DNA from: an uncultured Propionivibrio sp.
Lineage (GTDB): Bacteria; Pseudomonadota; Gammaproteobacteria; Burkholderiales; Rhodocyclaceae
Reading direction: 5' to 3'
DNA length: 64,000 nt
Assembly: GCF_963666255.1 (NCBI RefSeq)
Contig: NZ_OY762655.1
Span: 558,001-622,000, forward strand
A model generated the notes under the pieces. That model did not search any database and had not been told where the DNA came from. It saw only the letters and a program-made list of their open reading frames with translations. A program made the translations under genes and the position numbers. Positions 16,437 through 20,589 of this stretch are shown here, in pieces. Numbering within the stretch: position 1 is the first letter of the stretch; each line of letters opens with the position of its first letter.

Positions 16437-18389
16437 CTAGGACCAGAAGCGAATGGTGTTGCGGCCGGCTTCCTTGGCCTGATACATCGCGGCGTCGGCC
16501 CGCTTGAAAATTTCGCCGGCATCGATTTCGTGATTCACGAACAAGGTCACGCCGATACTGGCCGAACAATGGTGCACGACCGACAAGGGCTCGCCTTCGT
16601 CGCGCCGCAGGCTGATCCGGTACGGCTGCGCGAGCGAGAGGCGTATCTTCTCGGCGACCGCCAGGGCTTGCGCCCGTACTTGCTCGGGATCGTTCGGGTC
16701 AAGTTCGCAGATCATCACCACGAACTCGTCGCCGCCAAAGCGCGCGACCGTATCCATTTCGCGTATGCACCGCCGCATGCGCGCCGCCACCTCGACAAGC
16801 AGGAGATCTCCGGCGTCATGACCGTGGGTATCGTTGAGCGGCTTGAAGTTGTCGAGATCGATGAACATCAGCGCGCAGTAGCGTCCGCTGCGCTTGCTCG
16901 CCACCATGGCCTGGATCAGACGATCATGGAGCAGACGACGGTTCGGCAGACCGGTCAGCGCGTCGTAGAAGGCCAGTTGCCGAACATGCTCTTCCATCCG
17001 TTTCCACTCGGAAATGTCGGTATGAATGCCGATGATCCGCGCAGCTTTCCCCATGCTTTCCCATTCAACGGTCTTGCCGACCGAACGGATCCAGATCCAT
17101 TCGCCGGAAACGGTCCGGCAACGATATTCGATCGTGTGCGGCACACCGTCCGACGCACATTGCGCCAGCGCAGCAGAAAACGCTGCACGGTCCTCCGGAT
17201 GAACGAGCCGCGTCCATGATGCAATCGTCGTATCGAAGATCGCGGGATCGTAGCCCATCAAGCGAACATAATCGGCACTGACATTGATCTTGCCGCGCGT
17301 CAGGTCGATGTCGAACCAGCCCTGGTTCGACGCGCCGAGCGCCAGACGCAGGCGCTCCTCGCTTTCGCTCAGGGCTCTTTCAATCTGCCGGCGGTCGGTG
17401 ATGTCGTGAATGATCGAGAGGAGCAACGGAATCCGCCCGGTTTCGATTGGCGTCACGTAGGACTCAACATCACGGATCTCTCCCGACGCAAGACGGTGCT
17501 GGAACAGAAAGACTTTCCGTTCGCCCCGGATCGCCCGCTGCCGCTCCAGCGCCTCCTGCTCGCGCGACAGAATGTTGATATCGCCAATCGCCATTTTCAG
17601 CAACTGATCACGCGCATAGCCGTAAAAACGAACAGCCTCGCCGTTGGCGTCCATGATCTCGCCCGTGACCGGGTTGATCAGCAGCATGACGGATGAATTT
17701 TTCTCGAAGAACAGCCGGAAGTTCTCCTCGCTCCGCCGCAGGGCATCTTCGGCCTGCTTGCGCTCGGTAATGTCGCGGGAGAAGCCGAAAACACCGATGA
17801 TCTGGCCATCGCTGTCGCGCAGAGGTCCCTTGGTCGCCATGAAGACGCGATCGCCATCGACCGTCGTCACGATCTCTTCGTAGGTCGTGACGCGCCCGCC
17901 ATTCATCGCGGCAAGATCATTCTGCCGCACGATTTCGGCCTGCTCTGCCGGAAAGATGAAACTGTCGTCGCGGCCGATGATCTGCTCGGCTTCCTTTCTG
18001 ACCAGGCGACAGACCTCGCGGCTGATCATCAGATAACGCCCGTCGCGATCCTTGGCGAAGATGGCATCGGAAGAACTGTCGACAATGGCTTCGAGCAAGC
18101 CGGCCGTACGTTCCTTCTCCCGTCGGGCCGTCTGTTCGAGCTCGGCATAGGCCACCGCCTCATTGATCAGCCCGCGCACGAGCACATAGAGCATCAAGGC
18201 AGTCACCGCGACGAACAGCCACCCCTTGAGCGTACTGACCAGCGTGATCAATTCGCGGTCGTTGAACATGAAGCCGACCGCGGCATCCGAGAAGAGAATC
18301 CACAAGCTCGAAAACAGCGCATAGATCAGGACCACGCGCAACGCGCCCCCGCGCACCCTGGTCTTATGACTCCCCCTCTCCGACGTCAT
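16437..18389 (-). CDS. Membrane PAS-PAS-PAS-GGDEF diguanylate cyclase
   Basis: Predicted c-di-GMP synthase of 650 residues. Two N-terminal membrane segments (about 15-35 and 48-70), then three PAS/PAC units (about 90-205, 215-330, 340-455), then a GGDEF domain. The active-site FGGDEF is intact near residue 553, and REMD sits five residues before it, matching the RxxD product-inhibition site. No EAL domain. The ATG at 18389 is chosen because a GGAGG site lies 6 bases upstream; the frame also extends to GTG 18440 without such a site. It is divergent from a predicted c-di-GMP riboswitch about 250 bases away. Confidence 0.93.
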   Translation of the reverse strand: MTSERGSHKTRVRGGALRVVLIYALFSSLWILFSDAAVGFMFNDRELITLVSTLKGWLFVAVTALMLYVLVRGLINEAVAYAELEQTARREKERTAGLLEAIVDSSSDAIFAKDRDGRYLMISREVCRLVRKEAEQIIGRDDSFIFPAEQAEIVRQNDLAAMNGGRVTTYEEIVTTVDGDRVFMATKGPLRDSDGQIIGVFGFSRDITERKQAEDALRRSEENFRLFFEKNSSVMLLINPVTGEIMDANGEAVRFYGYARDQLLKMAIGDINILSREQEALERQRAIRGERKVFLFQHRLASGEIRDVESYVTPIETGRIPLLLSIIHDITDRRQIERALSESEERLRLALGASNQGWFDIDLTRGKINVSADYVRLMGYDPAIFDTTIASWTRLVHPEDRAAFSAALAQCASDGVPHTIEYRCRTVSGEWIWIRSVGKTVEWESMGKAARIIGIHTDISEWKRMEEHVRQLAFYDALTGLPNRRLLHDRLIQAMVASKRSGRYCALMFIDLDNFKPLNDTHGHDAGDLLLVEVAARMRRCIREMDTVARFGGDEFVVMICELDPNDPEQVRAQALAVAEKIRLSLAQPYRISLRRDEGEPLSVVHHCSASIGVTLFVNHEIDAGEIFKRADAAMYQAKEAGRNTIRFWS

Positions 18390-18633
18390 CCGGCTGCCTC
18401 CGATAACCGCACTTTTTGCGACGGACATCCGCTCCGACACGCGCCACGGCGCTTGTTACGATATAGGCATGACTCACCTTCAGATTACACCGTTTTTTCC
18501 CGTCGGCGACAATATCGTCACAGGATTGCGGCACGGAACAATCCGCTTGCGTACGGACTATACAAACGTGCTATAGTGTGCATATTCATCAGTAATGGCC
18601 CTTGTCGTCTCGACGCCGTCCTTCGGCTGACAC
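18390..18633. other. Divergent intergenic region, cyclase to riboswitch
   Basis: 244 bases with no supported gene. A 35-codon frame from ATG 18468 exists but has no ribosome site or family. The region should contain the promoters of the cyclase (minus) and of the riboswitch transcript (plus). Confidence 0.6.
18547..18577 (+). promoter_or_regulatory. Possible promoter of the riboswitch transcript
   Basis: TTGCGT and TATAGT separated by 19 bases, about 57 bases before the first predicted aptamer helix. The spacing is longer than the ideal 17, so this is a weak call. Confidence 0.35.
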
Positions 18634-18741
18634 CTCAAGGTTCTGTAAACAAGGCAAACCCATCGAAAGGTGGGGACGCAAAATCTCCGGCCTAAAGGAC
18701 GTCCGACGTCCCATGGTAGCGGGATCGCCAGGAAACCGAGC
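18634..18741 (+). ncRNA. Cyclic di-GMP-I (GEMM-I) riboswitch
   Basis: The conserved GEMM-I segments appear in order: GGCAAACC, a helix CCCATC/GGTGGG closed by a GAAA tetraloop (18659-18674), GGGACGCAAA, CTCCGGCCTAAA, and GGTAGCGGGA. A closing helix P1 can form from CTC..GGTT (18634-18642) and AACCGAG (18734-18740). The Shine-Dalgarno AGGA (18730-18733) abuts the P1 3' arm and the ATG follows at 18742. This suggests translational control, with ligand-closed P1 hiding the start (OFF); the sign of control is inference. A diguanylate cyclase is divergent to it. Confidence 0.93.
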
Positions 18742-19395
18742 ATGATGTACTCGACGACGACCAGCCGTCGCATTATCAAGGCAAAGGTCAAAAAAAGCCG
18801 CACCACGCAACGCAGCGTCCGCACCACGCCGAATACCGCGCCGATCAGGACGGATGCACCAAGCCTGCCGCGCTTCAGCCGCAAAGACGCCCCCGCCAAG
18901 AAAACCTCGAAGCACTGGTATTTGAGCTGGAAGCTGTTTGTCCCGCTCGTGCTCTGCTCGTCCGCAGCCATCGCCTATGCGTTCGTCGCTTCGTCGTCCG
19001 ACGAAGACGACCGGCCATCGACCACGCAAGCGCAGCCACAGACACAAACACAACGGAATTGGCGCAAGGCTGAGAAGGAAGAACCGGGCCAGATCCGCCC
19101 AATGGGTTACAGCGGCATCCACCCCCGCGGATCGGCAGGCGACAGCGGTCCGGTAAGCGGAATGGGCGGCGCGCGCCCAACTGGTTCGGTGGGGATACCC
19201 GGCATCGGCCAGACCGCGAGCCCAGCCCGCAAACAGGCCAATAACGGAAGCGACGCCGAGACGATCGAAGCCTCCTTCGGCGAAAACCGCAAGGTCACCC
19301 TGCCTGAAAATGTCGCCGGCAACTGCAAACTCAGCCAGCCGGGGCTCAAGGACCTGAGCAGCTGCCTCGCGCAGAACGGGGCGCGGGCCGAATAA
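18742..19395 (+). CDS. Unrecognised single-pass membrane protein under c-di-GMP riboswitch
   Basis: 217 residues, family not recognised. Residues 1-64 are strongly basic (RRIIKAKVKKSR and more), residues about 65-83 form one membrane segment (LFVPLVLCSSAAIAYAFVA), then an acidic DEDD and a Q/T/P/G-rich linker, and a C-terminal part of about 45 residues with two cysteines (GNCKLSQPGLKDLSSC), possibly a disulfide. Topology would be basic part inside, C-terminus outside. The ATG at 18742 follows AGGA by 8 bases. The in-frame ATG at 18670 lies inside the riboswitch aptamer and is rejected as start. A role in attachment or biofilm is guessed only from the riboswitch. Confidence 0.75.
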   Translation: MMYSTTTSRRIIKAKVKKSRTTQRSVRTTPNTAPIRTDAPSLPRFSRKDAPAKKTSKHWYLSWKLFVPLVLCSSAAIAYAFVASSSDEDDRPSTTQAQPQTQTQRNWRKAEKEEPGQIRPMGYSGIHPRGSAGDSGPVSGMGGARPTGSVGIPGIGQTASPARKQANNGSDAETIEASFGENRKVTLPENVAGNCKLSQPGLKDLSSCLAQNGARAE

Positions 19396-19435
19396 ACGCC
19401 CGTTTCCGGAGAGTCCCGGTACTACGCTTGGTTGG

Positions 19436-19505
19436 CGCGACGAATACCGGAATCCAGCCGACGCAGACACTGGGACCCCGGCTTTCGCCGGGGAGACCCA
19501 GAAAT
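19436..19505. repeat. Hairpin element of dispersed-repeat style
   Basis: The convergent gap before selD holds CCCCGGC-TTTC-GCCGGGG (19476-19493), flanked by CTGGGA and CCCAG arms and a preceding CCGGAATCCAG. This resembles short intergenic palindromic repeats common in proteobacteria. No T run, so it is not a classic terminator. Copy number cannot be judged from one window. Confidence 0.45.
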
Positions 19506-19515
19506 CGAAGGAGCG

Positions 19516-20589
19516 CTAAGCCGACACCTCGATGCGCGGCGCCCCGGCAGCCATTTCACCGATTAGCGCCGCGCGCGCAAAGCCCTGCGCCCGGAATATC
19601 GCCAGCACTTCGGCTTCGAGTTCCGGCGCGCACGCAACCAGCAAGCCGCCGCTCGTTTGCGGATCGGTCAGTAGCGCCCGCTCGACGTCGCCGAGACCGT
19701 TCCCGAGCACGATGCTCTCTCCATAACTCGTCCAGTTGCGTCCGGAAGCACCGGTAACGCAGCCATCGGCGATGTAGCCCGGCACGTTCGGCAGGATCGG
19801 CAGCGCCCGGTAGTCGATGCGCGCGGTCAGGTTCGAGCCCTTGCAGATTTCGAGCAGATGCCCGGCCAGGCCGAAGCCGGTGACATCGGTCAGCGCATTG
19901 ACGCCGGCCAACCCGCCGAGCATCGTTCCCGGCGTATTGAGCTGCGTCGTGCTGGCGATCATCGTCGCGTAGTCGGCGTCCGCCAGACGCGACTTCTTGA
20001 ACGCAGCGCTGTAGATGCCGACACCGAGGCCCTTGCCAAGGATCAGTTTGTCGCCGGCCTTGGCGCCGCTATTGCGCTTGAGCCGCGCCGGATCGACGAG
20101 ACCGATGGCGACAAGGCCGTAGATCGGCTCGACCGAGTCGATCGTATGCCCGCCGGCAATCGGGATGCCGGCTGCGGCGCAGACCGACTCGCCGCCTTCG
20201 AGGATGCGCCGGATCGTGTCCATCGGCAGCGTACTGACCGGCATGCCGACAAGACCGAGCGCGAAGAGCGGCGTACCGCCCATGGCGTAGACGTCGGAAA
20301 TGGCATTGGTTGCGGCGATGCGGCCGAAATCGAAGGGATCATCGACGATCGGCATGAAGAAATCGGTCGTCGCGACGATCGCCTGCCGGTCATTGATCTG
20401 GTAGACCGCCGCATCATCGGCCGTTTCGATGCCGACCAGCAGTTGTGGCGGCACCACCGACTTGGCCGTCTTGGCGAGAATCTGTTCGAGTACGCCCGGG
20501 GCGATCTTGCAACCGCAGCCGCCGCCGTGCGACAGCGAGGTCAGGCGAATCGGCGCTTCTGCTTTTTCAGCGTTCGTTTCAGTCACCAT
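19516..20589 (-). CDS. selD: Selenide, water dikinase
   Basis: Makes selenophosphate from selenide and ATP for selenocysteine or 2-selenouridine. The active-site region reads GGGCGCKIAPGVLEQIL with cysteine, not selenocysteine; DDAAVYQIND and GMGGTPLFAL style segments and the glycine-rich ATP region follow. 357 residues, normal. No selA, selB, tRNA-Sec or selU is in the window, so the user of its product is elsewhere. A GAGG site precedes the ATG. It is downstream of a copper chaperone gene by 7 bases, which is an unusual neighbour. Confidence 0.95.
   Translation of the reverse strand: MVTETNAEKAEAPIRLTSLSHGGGCGCKIAPGVLEQILAKTAKSVVPPQLLVGIETADDAAVYQINDRQAIVATTDFFMPIVDDPFDFGRIAATNAISDVYAMGGTPLFALGLVGMPVSTLPMDTIRRILEGGESVCAAAGIPIAGGHTIDSVEPIYGLVAIGLVDPARLKRNSGAKAGDKLILGKGLGVGIYSAAFKKSRLADADYATMIASTTQLNTPGTMLGGLAGVNALTDVTGFGLAGHLLEICKGSNLTARIDYRALPILPNVPGYIADGCVTGASGRNWTSYGESIVLGNGLGDVERALLTDPQTSGGLLVACAPELEAEVLAIFRAQGFARAALIGEMAAGAPRIEVSA

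What the first reader, a model, noticed from the sequence alone, without database searches (positions are those of the whole stretch)
18634..18741. c-di-GMP-I riboswitch with the ribosome site at its closing helix, divergent from a diguanylate cyclase
All GEMM-I sequence blocks are visible, and the AGGA ribosome site touches the 3' arm of P1, one base before the start codon follows. A c-di-GMP maker and a c-di-GMP-sensing RNA share one intergenic region, which suggests a local signalling pair. The direction of control (ligand hides the start) is inference.
Basis: partly seen in the sequence, partly recalled or inferred. Interest (0 to 1): 0.8.

Follow-up and report, generated by a model that had tools for sequence, protein, structure and literature searches.

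The report
c-di-GMP riboswitch on unknown membrane gene
A known type of RNA sensor for the bacterial signal c-di-GMP sits at the very start of an uncharacterised membrane-protein gene, with the ribosome's landing site built into the sensor's closing stem, so the signal probably switches off making of the protein; the neighbouring signal-making gene looks like an accidental neighbour.

Summary
The finding is real: window 18643-18732 (+) matches Rfam RF01051 over its full length (74.7 bits, gathering 35, E 8e-13), the only such match found in this Propionivibrio genome. The SD-like AGGA (18730-18733) lies inside the 3' arm of closing helix P1 (18729-18737), 8 nt before ATG 18742. Fifteen leaders in the sampled family share this layout; the outer part of P1 is 85% paired, with two-sided changes at 3 of 5 pairs. 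Best reading: translational control, most likely OFF (ligand closes P1 over the SD). Direction is inferred; folding energies do not decide it. The target is a single-pass membrane protein with two C-terminal cysteines and no Pfam family. A profile search of 395 family genomes found it in 10 at E<1e-7, each directly behind a c-di-GMP-I-type aptamer. Not supported: the 'local signalling pair'. A GGDEF gene adjoins the riboswitch in only 2 of 10 loci, both Propionivibrio; five others sit beside a chaperonin gene. New here: a compact expression platform and a small riboswitch-linked protein family, not a new riboswitch class.

The parts
18572..18577 (+). probable -10 promoter element TATAGT of the riboswitch transcript
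   Evidence: The stretch GTGCTATAGT is kept between the window and P. dicarboxylicus inside a diverged region. The consensus scan found no sigma-70 site. Start site inferred, not mapped.
18639..18645 (+). 5' arm of P1 (GGUU outer part, CUG inner part)
   Evidence: alignment A6 and pair counts.
18643..18732 (+). c-di-GMP-I (GEMM-I) riboswitch aptamer
   Evidence: RF01051, 74.7 bits, E 8e-13, model 1-87/87.
18720..18726 (+). CGGGAUC, 3' strand of P3; could instead pair with the P1 5' arm 18639-18645 (7 bp including G-U), a candidate rival helix
   Evidence: In the window's minimum-energy fold with 12 nt of upstream leader, but at 0.00-0.02 in ensemble folding with 60 nt.
18729..18737 (+). 3' arm of P1: CAG, bulged GA, AACC
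18730..18733 (+). Shine-Dalgarno-like AGGA inside P1, 8 nt before ATG 18742
   Evidence: AGGA (14) or GGGA (1) at the same place in the 15 leaders of alignment A6.
18742..19395 (+). target gene: 217-aa single-pass membrane protein, basic N-terminus, two C-terminal cysteines, no Pfam or NCBIfam family
   Evidence: The longer ORF from GTG 18670 runs through the aptamer; the start at 18742 agrees with the closest homologues.
16437..18389 (-). divergent diguanylate cyclase (three PAS, one GGDEF), adjacent but not a conserved part of the unit
   Evidence: conservation.

Best explanation
This is a c-di-GMP-I riboswitch that controls translation of the membrane-protein gene directly behind it. Transcription starts upstream (probably near 18583) and reads through the aptamer into the gene. 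When c-di-GMP binds, the aptamer's closing helix P1 becomes stable; its 3' strand is CAG-GA-AACC, which contains the Shine-Dalgarno AGGA, so the ribosome site is held in the helix and initiation at ATG 18742 falls (an OFF switch). Without ligand P1 is open and the gene is translated. Shown here: aptamer, layout, conservation and two-sided changes of the outer P1, and linkage to one protein family. Inferred: ligand identity in this strain, translation as the level of control, and the OFF direction. The diguanylate cyclase next door is one of many possible ligand sources, not a dedicated partner.
For: RF01051 match at twice the gathering score. Base G at the place of Vc2 G20 (18653), the c-di-GMP-type base; G20/A47/C92 as ligand contacts from PMC4744006 (passages), placement on this sequence recalled. 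A model built from 5 leaders, without the outer P1 pairs, led to 15 leaders (those 5 included) with the SD in P1 and an ATG 8-9 nt behind the aptamer. In these the outer P1 is 85.3% paired (shuffles mean 80.0, 0 of 500 as high), 6 cells with changes on both sides (shuffled mean 1.6), covariation 0.318 against at most 0.143 when slid. Outer-P1 complementarity, best of three offsets, averages 4.40 of 5 in these 15 against 2.66 of 5 in 164 other c-di-GMP-I leaders. Protein family: 10 of 395 genomes at E<1e-7, riboswitch directly upstream in 10 of 10 and in 0 of 4 weak hits. Precedent: Vc2 described as a translational OFF switch governed by P1, and P1 of the pilM switch forming only with ligand (PMC9262584, section 21 read).
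Against: For the window RNA the state with aptamer and P1 forced is 4.7 kcal/mol less stable than the free ensemble, and AGGA is only slightly more open in the free ensemble (0.61 unpaired against 0.50). In the free minimum-energy fold there, AGG of the SD pairs with an upstream CCU. With 60 nt of leader P1 is not populated without ligand (0.00). Two of the four AGGA bases are bulged in P1, so masking may be partial. The two-sided changes rest on few independent events, one measure (further pair types) does not exceed the shuffles (157 of 500 reach it), and the model includes the 5'-arm sequence of 5 leaders. Four of the 10 family members (G194, G149, G056, G154) have 90-182 nt between aptamer and start codon, so the P1-SD design is not universal for the gene family. 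Two of the 15 leaders (G412, G442) show no long ORF from the ATG, and two (G044, G105) pair less well in this register (4 and 6 of 8 pairs).
Confidence: 0.6

Rival explanations
1. Translational ON switch: without ligand the P1 5' arm and upstream leader pair elsewhere in a way that covers the ribosome site; ligand binding rearranges the leader and lets ribosomes in through the bulged GA.
For: In the free minimum-energy fold of the window leader (12 nt upstream) the 5' arm pairs with the P3 strand and the AGG of the SD pairs with an upstream CCU. P1 leaves two SD bases unpaired. GEMM-I switches of both signs exist (PMC9262584, title and passages).
Against: Outer P1 pairing over the SD is what is conserved across 15 leaders. 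The 5'-arm:P3 helix by itself frees the P1 3' arm rather than hiding it.
Confidence: 0.2
2. Control is not at initiation: ligand binding alters Rho-dependent termination or mRNA decay, with the SD overlap a by-product of a short leader.
For: Four members of the same gene family have 90-182 nt between aptamer and start codon, so other mechanisms are probably used there.
Against: No terminator-like site on the + strand in 18380-19530. AGGA or GGAG near the aptamer end in 15 of 15 direct leaders against 14 of 164 others, although carrying it helped define the 15.
Confidence: 0.12
3. One reading: riboswitch and divergent diguanylate cyclase form a dedicated local signalling pair.
For: Both share one intergenic region here and in P. 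dicarboxylicus, with a conserved block upstream of the cyclase and a kept TATAGT on the riboswitch side.
Against: Adjacent GGDEF in only 2 of 10 loci of this riboswitch-gene unit; G013 has a hybrid-kinase-like ORF upstream (by sight). 51 GGDEF domains in the genome. The riboswitch cannot control the cyclase in cis, as it reads the other way.
Confidence: 0.06
4. The aptamer senses 3',3'-cGAMP rather than c-di-GMP.
For: Same aptamer architecture; A at position 20 (cGAMP-type) occurs in other aptamers of the same genus.
Against: The window aptamer has G at that position; G20A is the change studied for cGAMP binding (PMC6274999, passages).
Confidence: 0.02

Closest known systems
c-di-GMP-I riboswitch, Rfam RF01051 (GEMM-I)
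   Same: Full-length match 74.7 bits, P2/P3 scaffold, GAAA tetraloop, GACGCAAA block.
   Different: Nothing in the aptamer; the expression platform is the unusual part.
Vc2 riboswitch of Vibrio cholerae (translational OFF switch)
   Same: Same class; P1 stability is described as the key to switching translation (PMC9262584, section 21).
   Different: [quoted passage not shown] here the SD is inside P1 itself and the ATG follows 9 nt after the aptamer.
Cd1 and pilM riboswitches
   Same: Same aptamer fold; pilM P1 forms only with ligand.
   Different: Described as transcriptional switches (PMC9262584, passages); no terminator-like site on this strand here.
c-di-GMP-I-GGC, Rfam RF03167
   Same: Same clan; it is the best-scoring model in front of the G149 and G194 members of the protein family.
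   Different: For the window RF01051 is the best-scoring clan member.

Membership tests
c-di-GMP-I riboswitch (RF01051) | Covariance-model score above gathering, full length | tested here: met
   74.7 against 35 bits, model 1-87/87
c-di-GMP-I riboswitch (RF01051) | G at the position of Vc2 G20 (c-di-GMP type rather than cGAMP type) | tested here: met
   G18653 in the GGCAAA block; position identity recalled, contact role from PMC4744006
c-di-GMP-I riboswitch (RF01051) | Binds c-di-GMP | not testable with these tools
   needs probing or calorimetry
c-di-GMP-I riboswitch (RF01051) | Lies in the 5' leader of a gene on the same strand | tested here: met
   ATG 18742, 9 nt after the aptamer; unit kept in 10 of 10 loci
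translational OFF riboswitch | Ribosome site sequestered by the ligand-stabilised helix | tested here: inconclusive
   Layout and two-sided changes met; folding energies undecided
translational OFF riboswitch | Output falls with ligand | not testable with these tools
   needs reporter or toeprint
dedicated cyclase-riboswitch pair | Adjacency conserved with the riboswitch unit | tested here: not met
   adjacent in 2 of 10 loci, both Propionivibrio
known protein family for the target gene | Match to a Pfam or NCBIfam model | tested here: not met
   0 Pfam families for 10 of 10 members at E<=0.01; in NCBIfam one weak TAT-signal match (E 0.0053) in 1 of 10; no PDB sequence match at E<=1

The most novel reading that the evidence does not exclude
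Rhodocyclaceae use a compact translational form of the c-di-GMP-I riboswitch in which the P1 5' arm chooses between the ribosome site (ligand bound, off) and the aptamer's own P3 strand (ligand free, on). They keep it in front of a previously unnamed family of single-pass inner-membrane proteins with a periplasmic two-cysteine tail, which would be a c-di-GMP output of the cell envelope known only through its riboswitch.
Probability: 0.3. Interest if true: 0.6.

Novelty: new variant of a known kind. Interest (0 to 1): 0.42.

Why it matters
The c-di-GMP-I switches described in PMC9262584 (Cd1, pilM, Vc2) either act on transcription or, for Vc2, mask a distant ribosome site. A short version with the ribosome site inside P1 is easy to test and could serve as a small translational c-di-GMP sensor. 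It also points to an unnamed membrane-protein family whose one constant genomic feature in this sample is its riboswitch, a clue that the protein acts in the change between motile and attached life. In this genome it is the only c-di-GMP-I target found, against 51 GGDEF domains.

Tried and rejected
Local signalling pair with the cyclase: checked by synteny and rejected as conserved. Strand exchange between P1 and a rival 5'-arm:P3 helix: the 7-bp complementarity is complete in 10 of 15 direct leaders and 0 of 164 others. However, the conserved CUG and CGGG bases make part of it automatic, and ensemble folding populates it above 0.5 in only 4 of 15 truncated leaders and at 0.00-0.02 in the window with 60 nt of leader, although it is in the window's minimum-energy fold with 12 nt of leader. 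Kept as a hypothesis only. Minimum-energy folding of the leader: z 0.21, uninformative. Structure of the target protein: model mean pLDDT 49, one helix 58-85, otherwise unreliable, so no fold search was run. The family beyond this bacterial family: 175 genomes of the class searched; the only match besides the window's own genome is a frame with four stops at E 2.5e-4, discarded. Four weak family hits (E 0.004-0.009: G159, G207, G236, G244) were dropped as chance (two look like other known proteins by sight; none has a c-di-GMP-I aptamer; the G159 locus has an unrelated V_AS9 match). Rows dropped: one search lists only its best matches and one search's list was not fetched in full; leaders were read for 172 places, and the direct-start leaders among them were picked by eye. 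Leaders with an SD just after P1, such as G037, G031, G317 and G373, were not counted as direct. A first version of the contrast with other leaders had one leader (G442) on a wrong offset; the corrected numbers are those. In one search one of the 30 printed leaders (G217) was read on a wrong offset; it is in no count.

Full report
WHAT IS THERE. The window carries a c-di-GMP-I aptamer at 18643-18732 on the + strand: 74.7 bits against a gathering score of 35, E 8e-13, the full model. It is the only RF01051 match found in the 3,993,109-base genome. The nearest named relative found is Propionivibrio dicarboxylicus DSM 5885 (G005/L116), and 28 genomes of the genus, the window's own included, are held. 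The family was taken as Rhodocyclaceae from this match (family name recalled; the tools give only numbers).

ANATOMY. Reading the sequence, the closing helix P1 is GGUU-CUG (18639-18645) with CAG-(GA)-AACC (18729-18737). AGGA (18730-18733) is therefore inside P1, two of its bases paired and two bulged, and ATG 18742 follows after 8 nt. A second ATG lies at 18745. The called ORF that starts at GTG 18670 runs through the aptamer and is unlikely to be the real start: the closest homologues begin at the ATG 8-9 nt behind the aptamer. Upstream, TATAGT (18572-18577) is kept in P. dicarboxylicus inside a diverged stretch, a probable -10 box; the consensus scan did not find a promoter, so the start site is inferred.

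THE SAME LAYOUT ELSEWHERE. RF01051 matches occur in 53 of 99 relatives and 199 of 395 family genomes, the window's own counted in both. I read the leaders of 172 places and picked by eye those with an ATG directly behind the aptamer and the SD in the aptamer's end. Five such leaders gave a covariance model (R1), deliberately built without the outer P1 pairs. A search of 395 genomes with it, and inspection of the best 30 matches, gave 15 leaders with this layout, the window and the 5 model leaders included. Behind them are: the membrane-protein family (6: window, G005, G013, G105, G135, G328); a roughly 580-aa protein without a Pfam match (G402, scanned, and G267, G351, G420, G428, alike by sight); an HDOD-GGDEF protein (G414); a PilZ protein (G044); and two with no long ORF from the ATG (G412, G442).

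PAIR COUNTS. On the alignment of these 15 the outer P1 of five pairs is 85.3% paired (shuffled mean 80.0, 0 of 500 as high). Three of five pairs have two-sided changes (13 of 500 shuffles reach this), in 6 cells (0 of 500). The covariation score is 0.318, against at most 0.143 when slid. One measure is not above the shuffles: further pair types, 6 against 5.1, reached in 157 of 500. The types are G-C and A-U at one pair, A-U, G-C and G-U at the next, and C-G, U-A and U-G at the last, where 6 of 15 do not pair. Few independent events are involved and the rows are related. The whole structure of 32 pairs is 92.9% paired with 17 pairs changed on both sides. Against 164 other c-di-GMP-I leaders, outer-P1 complementarity (best of three offsets) is 4.40 of 5 against 2.66 of 5; because the 5'-arm sequence was part of the model, this contrast is not fully independent.

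THE TARGET GENE. The 217-aa product has no Pfam or NCBIfam family. Three members were found by sequence. A fourth, G194, was a weak protein hit (E 4.9e-4) that turned out to lie behind an aptamer. Two more, G135 and G328, came from reading behind aptamers. A profile of these six over 395 genomes gave 10 genomes at E<1e-7 and 4 at 0.004-0.009. All 10 have a c-di-GMP-I or c-di-GMP-I-GGC aptamer directly upstream; none of the 4 has. Counting only members first found by protein sequence, the window aside (G005, G013, G194, G056, G105, G149, G154), it is 7 of 7. In six the start codon follows 8-9 nt after the aptamer (window, G005, G013, G105, G135, G328); in four it is 90, 115, 158 and 182 nt away (G194, G149, G056, G154). 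All 10 have one hydrophobic segment near residues 60-89, an N-terminus of net charge +7 to +15, and two cysteines near the C-terminus, invariant in the alignment. By the positive-inside rule (recalled) the tail is periplasmic. Codon differences between window and P. dicarboxylicus fall mainly on third positions (39, 37, 85), as in a coding gene. In the class beyond, 175 genomes gave nothing credible apart from the window's own. The structure model has one helix (58-85) and is otherwise unreliable.

THE CYCLASE NEXT DOOR. The divergent gene is a PAS-GGDEF protein. In 10 loci of the riboswitch-gene unit a motif search for GGDEF in ORFs of 150 codons or more finds one adjacent in 2 (window, P. 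dicarboxylicus) and about 2.6 kb off in 1 (G105). In five loci (G056, G105, G149, G154, G328) the unit lies beside a chaperonin gene: Cpn60 by Pfam in G056, G149 and G328, Cpn10 by Pfam in G105, GroEL by sight in G154. On the other side there is a response regulator and sensor kinase by Pfam in G105, and like proteins by sight in G154 and G328. G013 has a hybrid-kinase-like ORF in front (by sight). With 51 GGDEF domains in the genome, adjacency is weak evidence for a private pair.

MECHANISM. Most likely P1, closed by the ligand, holds the ribosome site. Precedent: Vc2 is described as a translational OFF switch whose P1 is the key element, and P1 of pilM forms only with ligand (PMC9262584, section 21 read; other passages). 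Against: the folding runs do not settle the direction. Free ensemble -47.8, aptamer plus P1 forced -43.1 kcal/mol; AGGA unpaired 0.61 free and 0.50 with P1; and in the free minimum-energy fold AGG pairs with an upstream CCU. A rival helix between the P1 5' arm and the P3 strand CGGGAUC would give a strand-exchange switch and is enriched in this class (complete in 10 of 15 against 0 of 164). It is in the window's minimum-energy fold with 12 nt of leader but at 0.00-0.02 with 60 nt. So the OFF direction stands at about two in three by my judgement.

LITERATURE. Searches for GEMM or c-di-GMP riboswitches with Propionivibrio, Rhodocyclaceae, Rhodocyclales, Accumulibacter, Dechloromonas or Azoarcus, and for c-di-GMP riboswitch with Shine-Dalgarno or ribosome-binding-site terms, listed no paper on this leader layout or gene family (titles and abstract starts seen, and the longer lists were cut: 25 of 133, 20 of 21, 8 of 27). 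Only the open part of PubMed Central is held, so this is not proof of absence from print.

VERDICT. A sound observation of a known riboswitch class. What is added is the expression platform inside P1, supported across a bacterial family, and a small unnamed membrane-protein family tied to it. The pairing with the cyclase should be dropped.

Noticed in passing
L037 (G013:C71:88024-88109), L043 (G018:C94:4787-4872), L073 (G044:C53:444429-444524): Aptamers with A instead of G at the place of Vc2 G20 (AGC before the CA-rich block), the base recalled as typical of cGAMP-sensing GEMM-I switches; the one in G013 stands before a GGDEF-EAL protein.
   Followed up: partly
L039, and by sight L038, L041, L045, L047, L048, L050, L051, L053, L054: In 10 same-genus leaders the c-di-GMP-I aptamer precedes a large protein, DUF1631 by Pfam in the one scanned (L039, 776 aa, PF07793 E 2.1e-149), similar by sight in the other nine, two of them shorter ORFs. 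Their aptamer ends are variants of CCAGAAAGCGGGGUUGAUCGUG, perhaps a second conserved platform.
   Followed up: partly
L215 (G414), 337-2332: A HDOD-GGDEF protein is translated directly behind an aptamer with the same P1-SD layout: a possible feedback loop in which a c-di-GMP-making enzyme is under its own product's riboswitch.
   Followed up: partly
L057 (G030:C18:88577-88664 - and 89017-89104 +); L147 (G295:C1, 671446 and 673626); L146 (G256:C1, 3501102 and 3503392): Two c-di-GMP-I aptamers within about 0.4-2.3 kb in one genome, divergent and nearly alike in G030, in the same direction in G295 and G256.
   Followed up: no
window 18430-18510: A block of about 80 bases upstream of the cyclase is well kept between the window and P. 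dicarboxylicus although the bases that follow are not; probably the cyclase promoter or operator.
   Followed up: no
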